From positions 1 to 59,584 of IMG/VR virus record IMGVR_UViG_3300027754_000102: 59,584 bases of DNA; one strand, written 5' to 3'. Position 1 is the stretch's first letter, and the number at the start of each line of letters is the position of its first letter. Of the stretch, positions 15,679 to 59,584 are shown one piece after another. The position numbers and the translations under genes were made by a program. The notes under the pieces were generated by a model. That model searched no databases. It was not told the DNA's origin and worked only from the letters and a program-made list of their open reading frames with translations. This DNA comes from a virus.

Positions 15679-16098
15679 ATGGCATCACTTGTTTACAATT
15701 CCGCCATACGGGATGCTTCGGTTGGCAATATCGATTTCGACAGCGATACATTCAAGATGATGCTGGTTACCAGCACATACACTGCTTCCAAGAGCCACGC
15801 AAAACGCTCCGACATTACCAACGAAGTTACAGGCACAGGCTACACGGCTGGCGGCAATGCTGCTGCCTGCACCGTGGCAGCAACCGACAATGTCAATAAC
15901 GATGTTGAAATAACCTTTAGCATCACGAGTTGGACCAGCGCAACCATTACGGCACGGGCAGGTGTGATTTACAAATCTCGCGGCGGTGCTTCATCTGCTG
16001 ATGAGTTGGTTGGTTATGTGGATTTCACGAGCGATACTACCAGCACCAATGGTACATTTGCGGTTACTATCTCTAGCCCACTGAAATTCCAAAACTAG
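15679..16098 (+). CDS. Virion-associated protein, paralog 2
   Basis: This 139-aa paralog has a good ribosome site (AGGAGAAGCC). It is closer to the module B protein at 57184-57603 (NIDFDSDTF, SKSHAKRS, VTGTGYTAGGNA, SWTSATITAR shared) than to its own neighbour. It marks the left end of the gapless 2.4-kb homology between modules. Function unknown, probably structural. Confidence 0.65.
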   Translation: MASLVYNSAIRDASVGNIDFDSDTFKMMLVTSTYTASKSHAKRSDITNEVTGTGYTAGGNAAACTVAATDNVNNDVEITFSITSWTSATITARAGVIYKSRGGASSADELVGYVDFTSDTTSTNGTFAVTISSPLKFQN

Positions 16099-16107
16099 GG
16101 ATAAAAC

Positions 16108-17916
16108 ATGGCGCTCATTAGAGCTGACCGCGTCAAGGAATCATCTACTAGCACCGGCACGGGGGTATTTACCCTGGCCGGTGCTGATTCCACTTACCGG
16201 ACATTCGCGTCTGTTTGTGCGGTGGCTGACACGGTTTACTATGTGATTGCTCACAGGACTAGCAATGAGTGGGAGGTTGGGCTCGGCACCTATAGCGCCA
16301 CCAACACGCTGACCAGGACAACAGTTCACGCAAGCAGTAACGCCAACGCGGCTGTGGCATTCAGCACCGGCACTAAAGACGTACTGCTGGCGCTGACGAA
16401 AGCACAGCTAGAAACGTACGCCACTCTAGCTGGCACCGAGACGCTGACGAACAAGACTATCAGCGGCGCAAACAACACCATCACCAATGTTTCACTAACT
16501 ACTGGCGTGACCGGCACTCTGCCACTAGCCAACGGTGGTACTGGTGCAACTACGCAGACAACAGCAGCTACTAGCCTGATCGGTAACCCTCCAAATGATG
16601 GATTGCAGTACACGCTGGCATCCAAGAAAACTAGCGGTACGCCATCGTTCTACTGGGTCGATTCGACTGGTTACGCTCCGACATTGGATTTGTTGTTTGC
16701 TGCGGATAAGACTCTCACGCCTTACTCTGGACCTACGCCAAGTTTTAGCAGGGCATCGACTGGCACATTAACTAATTCATCCGGCGTACTAACCACAGCA
16801 GCAGTAAACGCACCACGCTTCGACCATGTATACAACGGAACAAGCTGGGTGAGTAAAGGGCTGTTGGTCGAGGAGCAGAGGACGAATAGCGTTTTCTATT
16901 CTGAGCAGTTTAACTTGTGGGCAAAATCAAGATGCAATGTCACAGCTAATTCAATTACAGCTCCTGACGGAAACACCACAGCCGACTTATTGACGACATC
17001 TATTGCAGATGCCGTCAACGAAGCATATGTATATTCAAACAATGCACCATCTGGCCAGACTACTGTGTCTTGCAGCATTTTTGTTAAAAAAGGTAATTGC
17101 GATTATTTAAGGCTACAGATTTATGATTCAGCATTTTCGAATGGTGTTATTTCAAAAGTCAACATCAGCACCGGAGCAATAATTTCGACAAGCTCAATAG
17201 GCACAGGTTGGTCTGTGACTTCAGCAGATATTTCCAACTATGGATCTGGATGGTATCGAGTTACGCTAAACGCCAGCAAGCCATCTGGAAGCACGACAAG
17301 TATTTTATTTAGCTATTCATCGCTGGTGGCAGTAAATGCGGTTTTAGGCGATACTGTTTACCTATGGGGAGCCCAGATTGAAACCGGATCATCATTCCCT
17401 ACAAGCTACATTCCAACCACCACAGCAGCGGTGACAAGGTCAGCAGATGTTTGTCAGATTACTGGGACGGATTTTAGTGGGTTTTGGTATGCGAGTGAGG
17501 GAAGTTTAGTGGTTCAATATGATCGCCTTAATGTTCCCACTTCAAACGGTGTTCTTTTTGCAGCCTCGAAAGTTTCATCACCCTTACAGAACCTAATTTA
17601 CAATTTTGCAAGTAGTGGGAATGAAAACCTTTCAGTTTACAACGCCAACATTGATCAAGCCACATTTGCTATAGGATCTATTCCTTCAGCTGGCACATCT
17701 GCAAAAATTGGATTCTGTTACAAGGTTAACGATTTCGCTGGAACACTAAATGGTTCTGCTGTGGTCACGGATACTTCAGGTTCTGTTACGGCTGTAGAGC
17801 AAATTGGTATCGGTTACATTCACGGCACTACAGCAAATTACAACGGCCACATCTCCCGACTGAGCTACTACCCAGTCCGCATCCCAAACGCCACCCTACA
17901 GGTACTATCAACATGA
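16108..17916 (+). CDS. Tail fibre / receptor-binding protein (module A)
   Basis: This 602-aa protein has an N-terminal attachment domain (MALIRADRVKESSTSTGTG), the fibre signatures ETLTNKTI and LPLANGGTGATT near residues 110-150, and a C-terminal beta-rich domain from about 250 (GLLVEEQRTNSVFYSEQFNL, then GTGWSVTSADISNYGSGWYR), resembling carbohydrate-binding jelly rolls. The C-terminal coding region is AT-rich. From about residue 345 on it is identical to the module B fibre. It probably binds the host surface. Confidence 0.85.
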   Translation: MALIRADRVKESSTSTGTGVFTLAGADSTYRTFASVCAVADTVYYVIAHRTSNEWEVGLGTYSATNTLTRTTVHASSNANAAVAFSTGTKDVLLALTKAQLETYATLAGTETLTNKTISGANNTITNVSLTTGVTGTLPLANGGTGATTQTTAATSLIGNPPNDGLQYTLASKKTSGTPSFYWVDSTGYAPTLDLLFAADKTLTPYSGPTPSFSRASTGTLTNSSGVLTTAAVNAPRFDHVYNGTSWVSKGLLVEEQRTNSVFYSEQFNLWAKSRCNVTANSITAPDGNTTADLLTTSIADAVNEAYVYSNNAPSGQTTVSCSIFVKKGNCDYLRLQIYDSAFSNGVISKVNISTGAIISTSSIGTGWSVTSADISNYGSGWYRVTLNASKPSGSTTSILFSYSSLVAVNAVLGDTVYLWGAQIETGSSFPTSYIPTTTAAVTRSADVCQITGTDFSGFWYASEGSLVVQYDRLNVPTSNGVLFAASKVSSPLQNLIYNFASSGNENLSVYNANIDQATFAIGSIPSAGTSAKIGFCYKVNDFAGTLNGSAVVTDTSGSVTAVEQIGIGYIHGTTANYNGHISRLSYYPVRIPNATLQVLST

Positions 17917-18248
17917 TCGACCTACTTCTAAAGTTCCAATCGCAAGAGCAGGCTGGTCTAATCGGAGAGCAACTTGGCTACACTACCCGTGATCCTGAAA
18001 CGGGTGAGTTTCAAACAACGCAAGCCACATTGACGCTAGCAATCTGCGTAATAGGTGTGCATTACTATCCAGACGGAACAACCAGCGAAGGGCCGAACGG
18101 TGAGCAGGTTCCTAATCTGGTAGCAGATAATCAGTACTGGGTGATGGTTCGCTCTCTAGTGGACATGGTTATTCCTCCGGAGATTCAGCCGTTTATTGTT
18201 GCGCGTAATCCAGAAGACCCGACGATTCCAAACCAGAAATGGGCCTAA
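17913..18248 (+). CDS. Small protein after the fibre, possible fibre chaperone
   Basis: This 111-aa protein overlaps the fibre stop by four bases. It has no recognised domain; position directly after a receptor-binding fibre and length suggest a fibre assembly chaperone or tip protein. The first 167 bases are identical to the truncated copy at the right window edge (59418-59584). Two stop codons in a row end the gene. Confidence 0.55.
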   Translation: MIDLLLKFQSQEQAGLIGEQLGYTTRDPETGEFQTTQATLTLAICVIGVHYYPDGTTSEGPNGEQVPNLVADNQYWVMVRSLVDMVIPPEIQPFIVARNPEDPTIPNQKWA

Positions 18249-29812: not shown

Positions 29813-30508
29813 ATGGCTTTGGACCCGATGACCCCGGAGCAGCAGCGCATGGTCGAGGACAACCTAGCGCTGGCCCACTACGAGGTCCGCAAATATCGGG
29901 CGCCGTTGGGCATGGATTACGAGGACTGGCTGGGCGAGTGCTTGGTGCTGCTGGTGCAGGCCGTGCGGTATTACGAGCCGCAGAAGGGCACGCTGTTGAC
30001 CCTGATGGACCGACTTGTCTACCTGCGGCGCATGGACCTGAAACGGCAACGGCAGAGCATTAAACGGAAGACGCATTACGACGCGGTTTCCCTAGACCAG
30101 ATGGCCGACGACAACACCCTAGGCGAGCAGGTACTGGTCGACCACGACAGGGCGCCGCACCTGGTCGAGGTCCGGGAGGTGGTCGACTTGGTGCTGTCTC
30201 GAATGTCACCACAGGCCGTGCAGATTTTCCGGCTACTGGCTAAGGACATGACCAACCGGGAGGCGGCGAGAACCCTCGGCATTTGTCGCAGTCGGGTCTG
30301 CGACATTTTAATGCTGGCCCGAGGCATCGCAGCCCAGCAATACCCCGACGAGGTTATGCACAACACGTCATGCCCCGACTGCGGTACACCGCAGACGACA
30401 TGGGCCGAAGACGACAGGCCAAGACTGTGCAGGCCCTGTGCCGATCTGCGGGTCCGAGAAATCAAGCAGCGCTACTACCGACGACGCAAACAGGAGGCCA
30501 AGGCGTGA
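29813..30508 (+). CDS. Sigma-70-like factor with C-terminal zinc ribbon
   Basis: This 231-aa protein has a region 2-like part (LALAHYEVRKYRAPLGMDYE to YYEPQKGTLLTLMDRLVYLR), a short linker, a region 4-like HTH (DMTNREAARTLGICRSRVCD) and an added zinc ribbon (CPDCGTPQ and CRPC, about residues 190-215). Phage sigma factors redirect host RNA polymerase, usually to later genes. A second sigma-like protein lies at 39826. The zinc extension is unusual. It could instead be a region-2/4 protein without sigma activity. Confidence 0.7.
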   Translation: MALDPMTPEQQRMVEDNLALAHYEVRKYRAPLGMDYEDWLGECLVLLVQAVRYYEPQKGTLLTLMDRLVYLRRMDLKRQRQSIKRKTHYDAVSLDQMADDNTLGEQVLVDHDRAPHLVEVREVVDLVLSRMSPQAVQIFRLLAKDMTNREAARTLGICRSRVCDILMLARGIAAQQYPDEVMHNTSCPDCGTPQTTWAEDDRPRLCRPCADLRVREIKQRYYRRRKQEAKA

Positions 30509-30582
30509 AGCAAGAACCAGTGATTGAGAAATGGCCGCACCCGCATCTGACCTGGCCTGCCTGGTGCGGGGTGCAGGCATGA
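30505..30582 (+). CDS. Possible 25-residue coupled peptide
   Basis: A GTG start overlaps the sigma stop and its TGA overlaps the next ATG. The peptide is Trp/Pro-rich (EKWPHPHLTWPAWCG). The region of overlapping tiny frames suggests coupling, but a short leader without product function is equally possible. Confidence 0.3.
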   Translation: MKQEPVIEKWPHPHLTWPAWCGVQA

Positions 30583-30830
30583 GCGACCGCAGAAGTAAAT
30601 TGCCCATCAACATTGATGAAATTAAAAAAGTGCTAATCGTTGATAACGACTTGCCTAGCAGGCTTCGATGGGCGCCCGGCTACGGTGGATTTGGCGGCAA
30701 GGCTGCTGGCCATTTGAATCAGTTGGGCTATTGGACAGTGCGAGTAAAAAAACGTTTATTTTATGCCCATCGAATTGTCAAAGCACTAACGACGGGCAAA
30801 GACCCCGGGCAAAGTATGGTGCGTCGTTGA
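30579..30830 (+). pseudogene. Truncated HNH/AP2-type endonuclease remnant
   Basis: This 83-aa product has the pattern that precedes the HNH motif in phage homing endonucleases: RLRWAPGYGGFGGKAAGHLN, QLGYWTVRVKKRLFYAHRIV, ALTTGKDPGQ. The expected DH-dGN nuclease motif is missing because the frame stops 30 bases later. It may still be translated and couples to the TGT-like gene by a TTGA overlap. I read it as the relic of an inserted homing gene. Confidence 0.6.
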
Positions 30831-31588
30831 TCCATTACCACGGGTTGCCAATACATCCTGACCACGCCTGCGCTTTAATCTTGCAAGCAGGCCACGCAAT
30901 GGTTTCGTTTGCGCATCCCGAACAGTTAGGATTGGCGGCAGAGATTTGCCAGACGTTTGTGCTGGACAACGGGGCATTCTCGGCGTGGAAATCAGGTAAA
31001 CCAGTCGATGATTGGACACCGTATTTGGAATGGGCGCTTGATGCGTTTGCGCATCCCGGCTGCGATTGGGTCACTATTCCCGATAAGATCGACGGCAATG
31101 AAAGCGACAACGATAGCCTGGCAAAATGGTTTATAGGCAAATGGCGGGTCTACCGCAAAGACGAACTTTCTGCTTGTGTACCGGTTTGGCACATGCACGA
31201 ATCGTTTGAAAGACTACAACGTTTGGCAGCCATGTTCCATCGGATCGCTATCGGTTCATCGGGGGAATACTCGGAAATAGGCACCATAGACTGGTGGCAC
31301 AGGATCACAGCAGCAATTCAAAACATATCGGCGAATGGCCGGCCGCATGTCAAACTTCACGGAATGAGGATGCTAGATGTGCGGATATTTACTAGACTAC
31401 CACTATCGAGCGCGGACAGCACAAACATTGCTCGAAATGTTGGCATAGACAAGCGGTGGACTGGCTCATATCAACCGCCAACTAAGGCTGGGCGCGGCCA
31501 AATTTTAAGGCAGCGAATCGAAGCAAGTAACTCTGCACCCGTATTGGTCGAATTTTCGCCAACCAAGCAGAAGGAGTTATTCGCATGA
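30827..31588 (+). CDS. TGT/DpdA-like TIM-barrel protein
   Basis: The start is TTG 30827 (overlap TTGA), giving 253 aa beginning (M)IHYHGLPIHPDHA. Motifs are FVLDNGAFSAWKSG (D47), DWVTIPDKID (D86), PVWHMHESFERL, RIAIGSSGEYS and LHGMRMLDVRIFTRLPLSSADST (D197). This resembles tRNA-guanine transglycosylase-fold phage proteins related to DpdA, which exchange guanine for 7-deazaguanines in DNA; the zinc cysteines of bacterial Tgt are absent. No QueC/D/E/F-type genes lie in the window, so the base donor would come from the host. Activity is inferred. Confidence 0.6.
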   Translation: MIHYHGLPIHPDHACALILQAGHAMVSFAHPEQLGLAAEICQTFVLDNGAFSAWKSGKPVDDWTPYLEWALDAFAHPGCDWVTIPDKIDGNESDNDSLAKWFIGKWRVYRKDELSACVPVWHMHESFERLQRLAAMFHRIAIGSSGEYSEIGTIDWWHRITAAIQNISANGRPHVKLHGMRMLDVRIFTRLPLSSADSTNIARNVGIDKRWTGSYQPPTKAGRGQILRQRIEASNSAPVLVEFSPTKQKELFA

Positions 31589-31764
31589 GCGACAAAAACG
31601 CAGATCACACGCTGTCGGAACTGCAGGAGGCTAGGGCGGAGGTGGACCGGCTGCGGCGCCTGATCCGTAACCAGACCGGCGTCATGGTGCAGGGGCAGAC
31701 GTTTTGGCCCGACTGGGTGATGAATGAGCTGGGGCCGGATCAGACAATGCCGGGGGGCGAATGA
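31585..31764 (+). CDS. Small coiled-coil protein between TGT-like and PP-loop genes
   Basis: A 59-aa frame overlapping both neighbours by four bases (ATGA at each end). Residues 8-28 form a charged helix (LSELQEARAEVDRLRRLIRN), followed by a Trp-containing tail. It has a good site (AAGGAGTTATTCGC). Possibly a subunit or adaptor of the flanking enzymes; function unknown. Confidence 0.6.
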   Translation: MSDKNADHTLSELQEARAEVDRLRRLIRNQTGVMVQGQTFWPDWVMNELGPDQTMPGGE

Positions 31765-32591
31765 TGGGCAACCCGTACGAGATTGAGCGCCCTGGCATAA
31801 TTTCATTTTCTGGTGGAGCCACCAGTGGGTTTATGCTTTGGCAGATACTTCGGTCCTACGGTGGCAAACTGCCAGACGATATTAAAATTGTTTTTGCCAA
31901 TACGGGGCTAGAACATGAAAAGACGCTTGAGTTTATTCGCAATGTTGAAACGCAGTGGGGCGTCAAAGTTCATTGGCTGGAGTACCGAGCAAAACGAACT
32001 TTTGACGAGGTCACATACGAGACAGCCAGCCGGAGCGGAGAGCCGTTTGACATTTTGATTCAGGAGCGGCAGTACCTGCCTAATCCGGTTGCCCGGTTTT
32101 GCACCGTCGAATTGAAAATTCGGACCATTGATAGGTGGGCAGAAAACCTTGGGTGGGACGATGGGCACACCGAGGTGGTCGGGCTCAGATACGACGAGCC
32201 GCATCGGGTAACGCGTATAAAGGCAAACAGTAGGCGCAATGAGGTTGAGTGCCCAATGTTTATGGCAAGGCACACGCTGGAGGATGTTGAACAATTTTGG
32301 CAAAAAAACACATTCCGGCTGGAGATTCCCCGCTTATTGGGAAACTGTGCTGGGTGCTTTTTAAAGGGCCGGGACAAGATTCAGCGAATAGCTAAGGATC
32401 ATCCTAATTTGCTGGAATGGTGGGCCAAACGGGAAGAAGTGGCAATTGGCTGGAAGGAAGACGGAACAGCCAAAATGGCCCATTTTCGGTCTGACCGTCC
32501 AAGCTATCGGGGACTGATCAATATGGCCCAATCGCAACAGGAATTTCTTTTTACTGATGACGACACATTACCGTGTCATTGCACAGATTGA
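31761..32591 (+). CDS. PP-loop / PAPS-reductase-family protein
   Basis: This 276-aa protein has the PP-loop IISFSGGATSGFM (residues 13-25), IVFANTGLEHEKTLEFI, PVARFCTVELKIR and GNCAGCFLKG, the layout of phage PAPS-reductase-like N-type ATP pyrophosphatases (DndC relatives in the broad sense). Cys pairs in the C-terminal half could hold a metal or Fe-S cluster. Such enzymes activate a substrate with ATP, often for sulfur transfer. Together with the TGT-like gene it may form a nucleic-acid modification unit. Confidence 0.75.
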   Translation: MMGNPYEIERPGIISFSGGATSGFMLWQILRSYGGKLPDDIKIVFANTGLEHEKTLEFIRNVETQWGVKVHWLEYRAKRTFDEVTYETASRSGEPFDILIQERQYLPNPVARFCTVELKIRTIDRWAENLGWDDGHTEVVGLRYDEPHRVTRIKANSRRNEVECPMFMARHTLEDVEQFWQKNTFRLEIPRLLGNCAGCFLKGRDKIQRIAKDHPNLLEWWAKREEVAIGWKEDGTAKMAHFRSDRPSYRGLINMAQSQQEFLFTDDDTLPCHCTD

Positions 32592-33120: not shown

Positions 33121-33557
33121 TCGACCTGCCGGACTGGAGGCAACAGACCTCATTTGACTGCGGCCTAACGGCCACGCGCCTCGTCCTCCGGGGCGTCCGG
33201 CGGCGACCTCGGCCCGACCTGCGACAGATCCTCGGCACCAGCAGCCACGACGGCACCGACCCCCGCCAGATTGAAACCGTTTTACGCCAACACGACCTTG
33301 GCGTCGTGGCCGGGGAAATGCACGGCGACGACCTCGCCTATCTGACCGGCCGTGGGTGCCCTGTGGCGTGCCTAGTGCAGTTCGATGGCGTTGGCCATTG
33401 GGTGGTCGTTTGCCATGCCGATGGCCGACAGGTCCGCTACCAAGACCCCGCCACGGGCCCACAGTCGGTTGGCTGGCCGCGATGGCTGGCCGGCTGGCGA
33501 GACGTCGATCGGCTGGGCGCCGTTTACCGCCAGTGGGGGGTCGCCGCATGGAGATGA
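33117..33557 (+). CDS. C39-like papain-fold peptidase with non-ATG start
   Basis: The frame is open from a TAG at 33111 and encodes QQTSFDCGLTATRLVLRG (Cys near residue 15), VACLVQFDGVGHWVVVC (His near 99) and VRYQDPATGP (Asp near 112), a C39-like catalytic set. The first usual start, GTG 33306, is beyond the Cys, so I place the start at CTG 33117, which overlaps the previous stop (CTGA), giving 146 aa. Its substrate is unknown; C39 enzymes cut at Gly-Gly leaders. Confidence 0.6.
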   Translation: MIDLPDWRQQTSFDCGLTATRLVLRGVRRRPRPDLRQILGTSSHDGTDPRQIETVLRQHDLGVVAGEMHGDDLAYLTGRGCPVACLVQFDGVGHWVVVCHADGRQVRYQDPATGPQSVGWPRWLAGWRDVDRLGAVYRQWGVAAWR

Positions 33558-33946
33558 TCCTGCTACCGCTACCGCCATCAGCTAACAACCTGACCCGCAA
33601 GGCGCCCAGGCGCGGGGGCAAATATTTTCCCACCAAGGCCTATACCGACTGGACCACCGAGGCTAACGCCATGGCCATCGAGGCCGGCCTGATCCCGCGG
33701 CGGTCGGCACCATTTGAGCGCCCTGTCCACGTCCGGGTCGAGATCCTGCCGGGCAAGGGTCTGAGATTGGACCGCGACGCCGACAACATGGCAAAAGCCG
33801 TGCAGGACTGGCTGGTCAGATGGGGCTTTTTGACTGACGACAGCCTGCGGCACGTCCACGGTTGCCATGTAGTCTATAGGCCACAGGAGGCCAGCCCGAC
33901 GGGGCGGGCCGTGGTGCGAGTGTCATTTACTGAGGAGGAGACCTAA
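33548..33946 (+). CDS. RusA-family Holliday junction resolvase
   Basis: This 132-aa protein starts at ATG 33548 with LLPLPPSANNLTRKAPRRGG and carries the RusA motif LDRDADNMAKAVQDWLVRWG followed by FLTDDSL (D77, D79, K83, D97/D98 as candidates). RusA cuts four-way junctions made in recombination and replication, and can trim branched DNA before packaging. It is the last gene before the late module and overlaps the C39-like gene. Confidence 0.9.
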   Translation: MEMILLPLPPSANNLTRKAPRRGGKYFPTKAYTDWTTEANAMAIEAGLIPRRSAPFERPVHVRVEILPGKGLRLDRDADNMAKAVQDWLVRWGFLTDDSLRHVHGCHVVYRPQEASPTGRAVVRVSFTEEET

Positions 33947-57183: not shown

Positions 57184-57603
57184 ATGGCTTCTCTTGTTTA
57201 CAATTCGTGCATCCGCGACGCTGTCGTCGGCAATATTGATTTTGACACCGACACCTTCAAGGCCATGCTGGTCACGTCGACCTACTCGGCCAGCAAAAGC
57301 CACGCAAAACGCTCGCCTGACATCACTAACGAGGTGACTGGCACCGGCTACACAGCGGGCGGTAATGCTTGCTCGGTATCCGTGGCCGCCGTCGACAACA
57401 CCAACAACGATGTTGAAATCTCGTTCACAATCACATCGTGGACCAGCGCCACGATCACCGCCCGGGCCGCCGTCATCTACAAGTCCACCGGGACTGCTTC
57501 GGCTGATCCGCTCGTTGGCTACGTCGATTTTGGTTCGGACGTATCAAGTACCAACGGCACGTTTGCGGTGACTGTGAGCAGCCCATTGAAATTCCAAAAC
57601 TAG
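57184..57603 (+). CDS. Virion-associated protein (module B)
   Basis: This 139-aa homologue of the pair at 15251 and 15679 occurs once here. It shares MASLVYNS, NIDFDTDTF, TNEVTGTGYTAGGNA and SWTSATITARA with 15679-16098. Structural role presumed. It opens the right copy of the 2.4-kb direct repeat. Confidence 0.65.
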   Translation: MASLVYNSCIRDAVVGNIDFDTDTFKAMLVTSTYSASKSHAKRSPDITNEVTGTGYTAGGNACSVSVAAVDNTNNDVEISFTITSWTSATITARAAVIYKSTGTASADPLVGYVDFGSDVSSTNGTFAVTVSSPLKFQN

Positions 57604-57612
57604 GAATAACCC

Positions 57613-59421
57613 ATGGCGCTCATTCGAGCCGACCGCGTGAAGGAATCCAGCACCAGCACCGGCACGGGGGCATTCACCCTAGCCGGTGCTGATTCTACCT
57701 ACCGGACCTTTGCGTCAGTGTGTGCTGTGGCCGACACGGTTTACTATGCGATCGCGCACAGGACTGCAAATGAATGGGAAGTTGGACTTGGCACCTATAG
57801 CGCCACCAACACGCTGACCAGGACAACGGTTCACGCAAGCAGCAACGCCAACGCGGCTGTGGCATTCAGCACCGGCACTAAAGACGTGCTGCTGGCGCTC
57901 ACGAAAACCCAACTGGAAACATATGCAAGCCTGACTGGCACCGAAACCCTGACCAATAAAACCATCAACGCCAGCAACAACACTATCACCAACGTCTCGC
58001 TAACCTCTGGAGTGACAGGCACCCTGCCACTTGCCAACGGTGGTACTGGTGCAACTACCGCAGTTACTGGAGCGGTTAATCTAATCAAATCTGCGCCTAA
58101 TGATGGTGCTGAGTACACGCTAAAGAGCAAGCAAATTAGCGGTGCGCCATCGTTCTACTGGGTCGATTCGACTGGTTACGCTCCGACATTGGATTTGTTG
58201 TTTGCTGCTGATAAATCACTTACGGCGTATACTGGGCCGACTCCTTCATATAGTCGAGCAAGCACGGGTACTTATCTTAATGCGTCTGGCATACTAACAA
58301 CAGCAGCAGTAAACGCACCACGCTTCGACCATGTATACAGCGCAACAAGCTGGGCGAGTAAAGGGCTGTTGGTCGAGGAGCAGAGGACGAATAGCGTTTT
58401 CTATTCAGAGCAGTTTAACTTGTGGGCAAAATCAAGATGCAATGTCACAGCTAATTCAATTACAGCTCCTGACGGAAACACCACAGCCGACTTATTGACA
58501 ACATCTATTTCAGATGCCGTCAATGAAGCATATGTATATTCAAACAATGCACCATCTGGCCAGACTACTGTGTCTTGCAGCATTTTTGTTAAAAAAGGTA
58601 ATTGCGATTATTTAAGGCTACAGATTTATGATTCAGCATTTTCAAATGGTGTTATTTCAAAAGTCAACATCAGCACCGGAGCAATAATTTCGACAAGCTC
58701 AATAGGCACAGGTTGGTCTGTGACTTCAGCAGATATTTCCAACTATGGATCTGGATGGTATCGAGTTACGCTAAACGCCAGCAAGCCATCTGGAAGCACG
58801 ACAAGTATTTTATTTAGCTATTCATCGCTGGTGGCAGTAAATGCGGTTTTAGGCGATACTGTTTACCTATGGGGAGCCCAGATTGAAACCGGATCATCAT
58901 TCCCTACAAGCTACATTCCAACCACCACAGCAGCGGTGACAAGGTCAGCAGATGTTTGTCAGATTACTGGGACGGATTTTAGTGGGTTTTGGTATGCGAG
59001 TGAGGGAAGTTTAGTGGTTCAATATGATCGCCTTAATGTTCCCACTTCAAACGGTGTTCTTTTTGCAGCCTCGAAAGTTTCATCACCCTTACAGAACCTA
59101 ATTTACAATTTTGCAAGTAGTGGGAATGAAAACCTTTCAGTTTACAACGCCAACATTGATCAAGCCACATTTGCTATAGGATCTATTCCTTCAGCTGGCA
59201 CATCTGCAAAAATTGGATTCTGTTACAAGGTTAACGATTTCGCTGGAACACTAAATGGTTCTGCTGTGGTCACGGATACTTCAGGTTCTGTTACGGCTGT
59301 AGAGCAAATTGGTATCGGTTACATTCACGGCACTACAGCAAATTACAACGGCCACATCTCCCGACTGAGCTACTACCCAGTCCGCATCCCAAACGCCACC
59401 CTACAGGTACTATCAACATGA
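57613..59421 (+). CDS. Tail fibre / receptor-binding protein (module B)
   Basis: This 602-aa protein has the same length as the module A fibre. The N-terminal 230 residues differ moderately (NASNNTITNVSLTSGVTGTL; TAVTGAVNLIKSAPNDGAEY), while the C-terminal domain is nearly identical and identical from about residue 345. The coding sequence turns AT-rich from about 58100, unlike the GC-rich rest of module B, so the tip looks acquired. Confidence 0.85.
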   Translation: MALIRADRVKESSTSTGTGAFTLAGADSTYRTFASVCAVADTVYYAIAHRTANEWEVGLGTYSATNTLTRTTVHASSNANAAVAFSTGTKDVLLALTKTQLETYASLTGTETLTNKTINASNNTITNVSLTSGVTGTLPLANGGTGATTAVTGAVNLIKSAPNDGAEYTLKSKQISGAPSFYWVDSTGYAPTLDLLFAADKSLTAYTGPTPSYSRASTGTYLNASGILTTAAVNAPRFDHVYSATSWASKGLLVEEQRTNSVFYSEQFNLWAKSRCNVTANSITAPDGNTTADLLTTSISDAVNEAYVYSNNAPSGQTTVSCSIFVKKGNCDYLRLQIYDSAFSNGVISKVNISTGAIISTSSIGTGWSVTSADISNYGSGWYRVTLNASKPSGSTTSILFSYSSLVAVNAVLGDTVYLWGAQIETGSSFPTSYIPTTTAAVTRSADVCQITGTDFSGFWYASEGSLVVQYDRLNVPTSNGVLFAASKVSSPLQNLIYNFASSGNENLSVYNANIDQATFAIGSIPSAGTSAKIGFCYKVNDFAGTLNGSAVVTDTSGSVTAVEQIGIGYIHGTTANYNGHISRLSYYPVRIPNATLQVLST

Positions 59422-59584
59422 TCGACCTACTTCTAAAGTTCCAATCGCAAGAGCAGGCTGGTCTAATCGGAGAGCAACTTGGCTACACTACCCGTGATCC
59501 TGAAACGGGTGAGTTTCAAACAACGCAAGCCACATTGACGCTAGCAATCTGCGTAATAGGTGTGCATTACTATCCAGACGGAAC
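59418..59584 (+). CDS. Small protein after the fibre, cut by the window edge
   Basis: The first 55 codons match 17913-18079 exactly by eye. The gene overlaps the fibre stop and is truncated by the end of the window, not by mutation. Confidence 0.6.
   Translation, partial: MIDLLLKFQSQEQAGLIGEQLGYTTRDPETGEFQTTQATLTLAICVIGVHYYPDG

What the first reader, a model, noticed from the sequence alone, without database searches (positions are those of the whole stretch)
30579..32591. TGT-like protein, coiled-coil peptide and PP-loop enzyme in one overlapped unit
All three genes overlap by four bases, implying joint work. A DpdA-like transglycosylase exchanges guanine for a deazaguanine in phage DNA; a PP-loop enzyme can activate or thiolate a substrate. 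The pair could make an undescribed, possibly sulfur-containing base modification that resists restriction. An HNH relic lies directly upstream.
Basis: partly seen in the sequence, partly recalled or inferred. Interest (0 to 1): 0.7.

Follow-up and report, generated by a model that had tools for sequence, protein, structure and literature searches.

The report
Short phage DNA-base-swapping enzyme cassette
A phage carries a shortened relative of an enzyme that swaps guanine in DNA for an unusual base that can block host defence enzymes; relatives of this enzyme often sit beside genes that supply such a base, whereas the sulfur-type enzyme next door looks like an ordinary neighbour.

Summary
The three genes and their four-base (ATGA) overlaps are real, and both folds are confirmed by structure prediction. 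The 253-aa TGT-like protein (30827-31588, TTG start) falls in the same PHROG (887) as DpdA of phage 9g, aligns with it by profile, and keeps invariant active-site residues without the zinc cysteines of tRNA TGTs. It resembles the 'singleton DpdA' group of unknown activity (Hutinet 2019). Neighbours of its relatives point to 7-deazaguanine: of 80 viral loci, 53 have a Vut_1/YhhQ-type transporter adjacent, 12 a QueD-like gene and 21 an 80-aa protein remotely like QueF (74 have at least one). Of 80 genome (prophage) loci, 36 have at least one. Eighty DUF669 control loci have none. The window itself has none, so host-made preQ0 is inferred. The PP-loop protein is NinC-like; within 3 kb it lies near TGT (17 of 80) about as often as near RusA (14 of 80), and closer relatives of the phage have TGT without it beside. 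A joint sulfur modification is not supported. The 'HNH relic' is a conserved small protein overlapping TGT in four other contigs. Most likely: a short, singleton DpdA-type phage DNA modifier plus an unrelated neighbour.

The parts
29813..30508 (+). sigma-factor-like protein, upstream context
   Evidence: PHROG 351 RNA polymerase sigma factor E 4e-11; a gene in a similar place is seen upstream of TGT in L004 and L178, not compared by sequence
30579..30830 (+). 83-aa HNH-derived small protein that ends before the catalytic HNH region; overlaps TGT by TTGA
   Evidence: PHROG 99 positions 106-175 of 383, E 1.1e-10; intact homologue directly upstream of TGT in L003, L004, L178 and L179; amino-acid identity 38-71% to the window with synonymous sites saturated
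30827..31588 (+). TGT/DpdA-like protein, 253 aa with TTG start
   Evidence: PHROG 887 E 2.3e-62; model and fold; hhalign to phage 9g DpdA prob 96%, E 2.4e-9; D47, D86, H122, H178, D197 in 67 of 67 aligned sequences
31585..31764 (+). 59-aa coiled-coil-like peptide
   Evidence: homologue directly after TGT in L003 (46% identical) and L178 (50%), dN/dS 0.28-0.32; no family passing a cut-off
31761..32591 (+). PP-loop protein, PAPS-reductase family, NinC-like
   Evidence: Pfam PF01507 24.3 bits over the cut-off 22.5; PHROG 424 E 1.3e-47; model and fold; phage relatives annotated NinC
33548..33946 (+). RusA-like Holliday junction resolvase, neighbour
   Evidence: Pfam PF05866 E 3e-5, over cut-off

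Best explanation
The TGT-like gene encodes a short, zinc-less DpdA that exchanges guanine for a 7-deazaguanine (preQ0 or a derivative) in phage DNA, probably to blunt host restriction. Shown by computation: the fold, invariant acidic active-site residues, homology to phage 9g DpdA, and recurrent adjacency of its relatives to a Vut_1/YhhQ-type transporter, QueD or a QueF-like small protein. Inferred: that DNA rather than tRNA is the substrate, that in this phage the base comes from the host (no QueD, QueC, QueF or Vut_1 match in the record), and the anti-restriction role. The upstream HNH-derived protein and the downstream coiled-coil peptide travel with this TGT in related phages and may help it find or hold DNA (conjecture). 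The PP-loop gene is an independent NinC-type neighbour of the recombination region.
For: Fold. Same PHROG as 9g DpdA (887; 2e-98 for 9g, 2.3e-62 here) and profile alignment over the motifs D-G-A-F-S, P-x-x-H, H-G, S-x-D-S; 9g DpdA puts dPreQ0, and with Gat-QueC dG+, into DNA (PMC6884629, passages). Neighbours within 1.5 kb, viral TGT loci: Vut_1-like 53 of 80, QueD 12 of 80, QueF-like 21 of 80, any 74 of 80; genome TGT loci: 3, 5, 29, any 36 of 80; controls: DUF669 loci 0, 0, 0 of 80; PP loci 1, 0, 0 of 80; RusA loci 2, 0, 1 of 80, the RusA hits only in loci that also hold TGT. On a TGT tree of 141 rows the labels change 10, 9 and 14 times, so the links arose repeatedly. Vut_1 and QueD never co-occur (0 of 80; 53 and 12 apart), as expected of alternative supply routes. 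PP.
Against: No DNA modification was measured. The window and its closer relatives (L003, L004, L178, L179) lack all three supply genes next to TGT, as do 44 of 80 genome loci and, among the isolates looked at, BTP1, Athena1 and D105 (in one search only Vut_1 was tested for the isolates). Pfam's TGT model did not match. The sampled loci are the best 80 of more than 500 matches (viral) and some are near-duplicates, so Fisher values overstate independence. PP is commoner near TGT than near DUF669 (17 versus 3 of 80, p 0.0013), and among RusA loci 3 of 4 with TGT had PP against 11 of 76 without (p 0.016), so a weak link is not ruled out.
Confidence: 0.6

Rival explanations
1. TGT and PP-loop act together: the PP-loop enzyme activates or thiolates the 7-deazaguanine or the DNA.
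For: Four-base overlaps; PP-loop fold near sulfur-handling enzymes LarE and NcsA; conserved cysteines C114, C196, C199 and mostly C272/C274; a PP-loop gene directly overlaps a divergent TGT in Microcystis phage Mae-JY30 (L013), and 23 of 24 PP copies within 3 kb of a TGT are on its strand.
Against: No PP-loop gene beside TGT in L003, L178, L179 (L004 ends 0.5 kb after TGT); order and distance vary from overlap to over 2 kb; 76 of 80 PP loci have no TGT; no excess over RusA; lambda ninC is non-essential and lies in the nin region (PMC10695390, passages).
Confidence: 0.1
2. The enzyme modifies host or phage tRNA (queuosine-type exchange), tuning translation.
For: TGT fold with Z 16 to tRNA TGTs.
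Against: Zinc cysteines are absent (no column over 80% Cys); it groups with 9g DpdA, which did not complement an E. coli tgt mutant (PMC6884629, passages).
Confidence: 0.12
3. It acts in protein deazaguanylation biology: a Cap10-like protein binder, or a counter to type IV CBASS.
For: Cap10 (9ntn_B) is among the top structural matches, Z 16.3 over 234 residues; Cap9/Cap10 link a 7-deazaguanine to a protein (PMC11996544, abstract).
Against: Z is tied with tRNA TGTs; no QueC/Cap9 family match in the record; the relatives keep both acidic residues and sit with supply genes.
Confidence: 0.07
4. Degenerate leftover without function.
For: Non-ATG start, fragmentary HNH gene upstream.
Against: TGT dN/dS about 0.05 between window and L003 and between L004 and L003; active site intact.
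Confidence: 0.03

Closest known systems
Phage DpdA (Enterobacteria phage 9g; PHROG 887)
   Same: PHROG, motifs D-G-A-F-S / H / H-G / D-S, TGT-type barrel
   Different: 253 aa against 317; 21% identity in the alignment; no FolE-QueD-QueE-Gat-QueC cluster beside it (one search shows the cluster in 9g)
'Singleton DpdA' phages of Hutinet et al. 2019 (PMC6884629)
   Same: DpdA homologue without preQ0 synthesis genes; gamma-proteobacterial phages figure in both
   Different: their member list is in supplements not read here; that paper saw no correlation of YhhQ with any phage group, whereas Vut_1 adjoins TGT in 53 of 80 viral loci here
Lambda NinC / phage PAPS-reductase-family proteins (PHROG 424)
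   Same: PP-loop fold, family and name of annotated relatives
   Different: I know of no established function of NinC (recalled); here it overlaps the coiled-coil gene
Type IV CBASS Cap9/Cap10
   Same: a TGT-family protein paired with a PP-loop protein (PMC11996544, abstract)
   Different: the PP-loop partner there is QueC-like and the target is a protein; here no QueC match

Membership tests
DpdA (phage 7-deazaguanine DNA transglycosylase) | homology to an experimentally tested DpdA | tested here: met
   PHROG 887 and hhalign to 9g DpdA, prob 96%, E 2.4e-9, 146 columns
DpdA (phage 7-deazaguanine DNA transglycosylase) | TGT-type barrel with two catalytic aspartates | tested here: met
   fold; D47 and D197 in 67 of 67; their matching to TGT D102 and D280 is by motif order, recalled, not by a residue-level structural alignment
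DpdA (phage 7-deazaguanine DNA transglycosylase) | 7-deazaguanine in phage DNA | not testable with these tools
   needs LC-MS
DpdA (phage 7-deazaguanine DNA transglycosylase) | preQ0 supply genes in the same genome (a feature of some DpdA phages only, not of singletons) | tested here: not met
   no QueD, Vut_1, QueC or QueF match in the record; FolE and QueE not searched; the record may be a fragment
tRNA-guanine transglycosylase | zinc-binding cysteine motif | tested here: not met
   no column over 80% Cys in 67 sequences
PAPS reductase family (PF01507) | Pfam match over cut-off and PP-loop fold | tested here: met
   24.3 against 22.5 bits; fold
DndC / DNA phosphorothioation | dnd or ssp partner genes beside it | not tested
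   not searched by profile; none recognised by eye
QueC (PF06508) | QueC family match | tested here: not met
   no match in the record
Type IV CBASS Cap9/Cap10 | CD-NTase partner beside TGT-like protein | not tested
   no profile search made

The most novel reading that the evidence does not exclude
Short singleton DpdAs are the core of a widespread 'scavenging' phage DNA-modification module with swappable supply genes: a Vut_1/YhhQ-type importer (PHROG 4899, no function given), QueD, or an 80-aa minimal QueF-like enzyme (PHROG 37496, no function given); the window shows a version in which a nuclease-dead HNH-derived protein and a coiled-coil peptide are fixed partners that target the transglycosylase to DNA.
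Probability: 0.3. Interest if true: 0.72.

Novelty: new variant of a known kind. Interest (0 to 1): 0.5.

Why it matters
The largest group of phages with DpdA in the 2019 survey carries no synthesis genes, and its modification status was called difficult to predict (PMC6884629, passages). Adjacent Vut_1, QueD and QueF-like genes give such phages a concrete role and isolates to test, for example Acinetobacter phage AB3P2 (TGT then Vut_1) and Pseudomonas phage Epa33 (QueF-like gene then TGT). Two PHROGs of unknown function would gain predicted roles.

Tried and rejected
Joint TGT-PP-loop function: tested by neighbourhood counts against RusA and DUF669 loci and set at low probability. PP-loop as a relative of PDB 21fy 'PptA': seen with the 7-row profile at E 5.1e-6, absent up to E 10 with the 51-row profile, so not used. 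QueF-like nature of the 80-aa protein: PDB best hit QueF-Like 5jyx at only E 0.019, hhalign prob 75%, E 2.5e-5, no Pfam match to QueF; kept as probable, not shown. Close-relative scans with single sequences gave 3 and 2 loci and were replaced by alignments. Sequence search of the TGT family against PDB gave no TGT, only repeat-protein and chance matches. Literature: no paper held all of 'queuine tRNA-ribosyltransferase', 'phosphoadenosine phosphosulfate reductase' and 'phage'; searches for PptA and for phage-encoded phosphorothioation showed nothing on this gene pair in their listings. A 2024 review and a 2023 paper on further phage 7-deazaguanines are not held.

Full report
Observation. The window is a whole IMG/VR virus record of 59,584 bases. 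At the stated place lie, on the + strand, an 83-aa ORF (30579-30830), the TGT-like gene (TTG start 30827, end 31588), a 59-aa coiled-coil-like peptide (31585-31764) and a PP-loop gene (31761-32591), each overlapping the next by four bases. The TGT start is set by relatives, which begin MIHYHG. The same order is found at 100% protein identity in a second contig, L002.

What the TGT-like protein is. Pfam gives nothing, but PHROG 887, 'queuine tRNA-ribosyltransferase', matches at E 2.3e-62. A model built on 67 sequences has mean pLDDT 92.6. Foldseek lists TIM barrels, tryptophan synthase alpha and TGT close together; VIA-align puts tRNA-guanine transglycosylases on top, Z 16.4 over 222 residues at 2.9 A, with CBASS Cap10 tied at 16.3. 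DpdA of phage 9g falls in the same PHROG at 2e-98 and aligns by profile at prob 96%, E 2.4e-9. D47, D86, H122, H178, R181 and D197 are identical in 67 of 67 rows, and no column is over 80% Cys, so the zinc site of tRNA TGTs is missing. In phages it is found in 106 of 50,697 records at E up to 1e-5, many of Vibrio and Salmonella. Hutinet et al. 2019 (PMC6884629, passages) describe singleton DpdAs in mycobacterial and gamma-proteobacterial phages and call their modification status difficult to predict; they report that some phages encode YhhQ but with no correlation with any group. Whether this exact family is theirs was not checked in their supplements.

Neighbours of the TGT family. In the viral loci a Vut_1 (PF02592) transporter-like gene adjoins TGT on the same strand in 53 of 80 (Pfam E 1.2e-9 for two examples). 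QueD-like genes lie within 1.5 kb in 12 of 80 (Pfam PTPS E 5.9e-26 and 1.5e-29 for two examples). An 80-aa family, here called CPVN after its motif and equal to PHROG 37496, lies within 1.5 kb in 21 of 80. At least one of the three is present in 74 of 80. In genome loci the counts are 3, 5 and 29 of 80, any 36 of 80. Controls: 80 DUF669 loci 0, 0, 0; 80 PP-loop loci 1, 0, 0 (3, 0, 1 within 3 kb; the three Vut_1 loci also hold TGT); 80 RusA loci 2, 0, 1, all in loci that also hold TGT. A FastTree tree of 141 TGT rows needs 10, 9 and 14 changes for the three labels. Vut_1 and QueD never occur together in the 80 viral loci. Three further contigs, L177, L183 and L184, bear a divergent TGT directly after a nucleoside 2-deoxyribosyltransferase-like gene (PF05014 over cut-off) and a weak QueD-like gene (PTPS E 7.9e-4, under cut-off).

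The CPVN protein. Its best PDB match by profile is archaeosine synthase QueF-Like, 5jyx, E 0.019, and hhalign against four bacterial QueF sequences gives prob 75%, E 2.5e-5, aligning the CP motif and the H-E motif. It is therefore a probable minimal QueF-like enzyme; this is a lead, not a proof.

The window's own setting. The record has no match to QueD, Vut_1, QueC or QueF and no CPVN. Next to the TGT of L003, L178 and L179 these genes are also absent, and no such gene was seen in L004, which ends soon after. What is shared is the HNH-derived protein directly upstream: 38-71% identical to the window, intact in all, synonymous sites saturated; and, in L003 and L178/L179, the coiled-coil peptide directly downstream. 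L178 and L179 look like copies of one phage. That it guides the enzyme to DNA is conjecture.

The PP-loop gene. It belongs to the PAPS-reductase family, with a confident model nearest to APS/PAPS reductases, then LarE, NcsA and GMP synthases. Phage relatives, found in 420 of 50,697 records, are often named NinC; lambda ninC is annotated PAPS reductase family and is non-essential (PMC10695390, passages). In some loci it stands in a RusA-PP-NinB row (L074), and a RusA gene also follows in the window. Within 3 kb it occurs in 17 of 80 viral TGT loci, 4 of 80 genome TGT loci by the stricter count (5), 14 of 80 RusA loci and 3 of 80 DUF669 loci. Fisher p is 0.69 against RusA and 0.0013 against DUF669. 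Against this reading, 3 of 4 RusA loci with TGT also have PP, against 11 of 76 (p 0.016), but at least three of those four loci were already in the TGT set. On the TGT tree the PP label changes 16 times for 21 bearers, which fits a mobile neighbour. I conclude that the PP-loop gene most likely works apart.

Mechanism and limits. The likely reaction is exchange of guanine in DNA for preQ0 or a derivative made by the host. Fold, active site and homology are computed; substrate, base and role are inferred. No experiment was possible. Locus sets are best-hit samples with related members, so p-values are rough.

Noticed in passing
15679-18079 and 57184-59584: A 2.4-kb repeat, 89% identical, ends two sets of phage structural genes (two terminase-like and two portal-like genes, by eye), so the record may hold two related phages or prophages in tandem.
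   Followed up: partly
L074:8130-8432, L006:5753-5998, L289 and others: PHROG 37496 ('CPVN'), about 80 aa, no known function, lies within 1.5 kb of the TGT-like gene in 50 of 160 loci and is remotely like QueF.
   Followed up: partly
L005:6717-7190 and 53 of 80 viral TGT loci: Vut_1/YhhQ-like transporter gene (PHROG 4899, function unknown) adjoins the TGT-like gene.
   Followed up: yes
L177:4378-5779, L183, L184: Divergent TGT directly after a nucleoside 2-deoxyribosyltransferase-like gene and a weak QueD-like gene.
   Followed up: no
L127:1527-3279 and L013:4001-5508: A second TGT subfamily (33-34% identical to the window) lies beside PP-loop genes, in L013 overlapping.
   Followed up: no
L317 (Rhodopirellula rubra): A planctomycete genome bears a TGT relative (40%) with a divergent CPVN-like gene next to it.
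   Followed up: no
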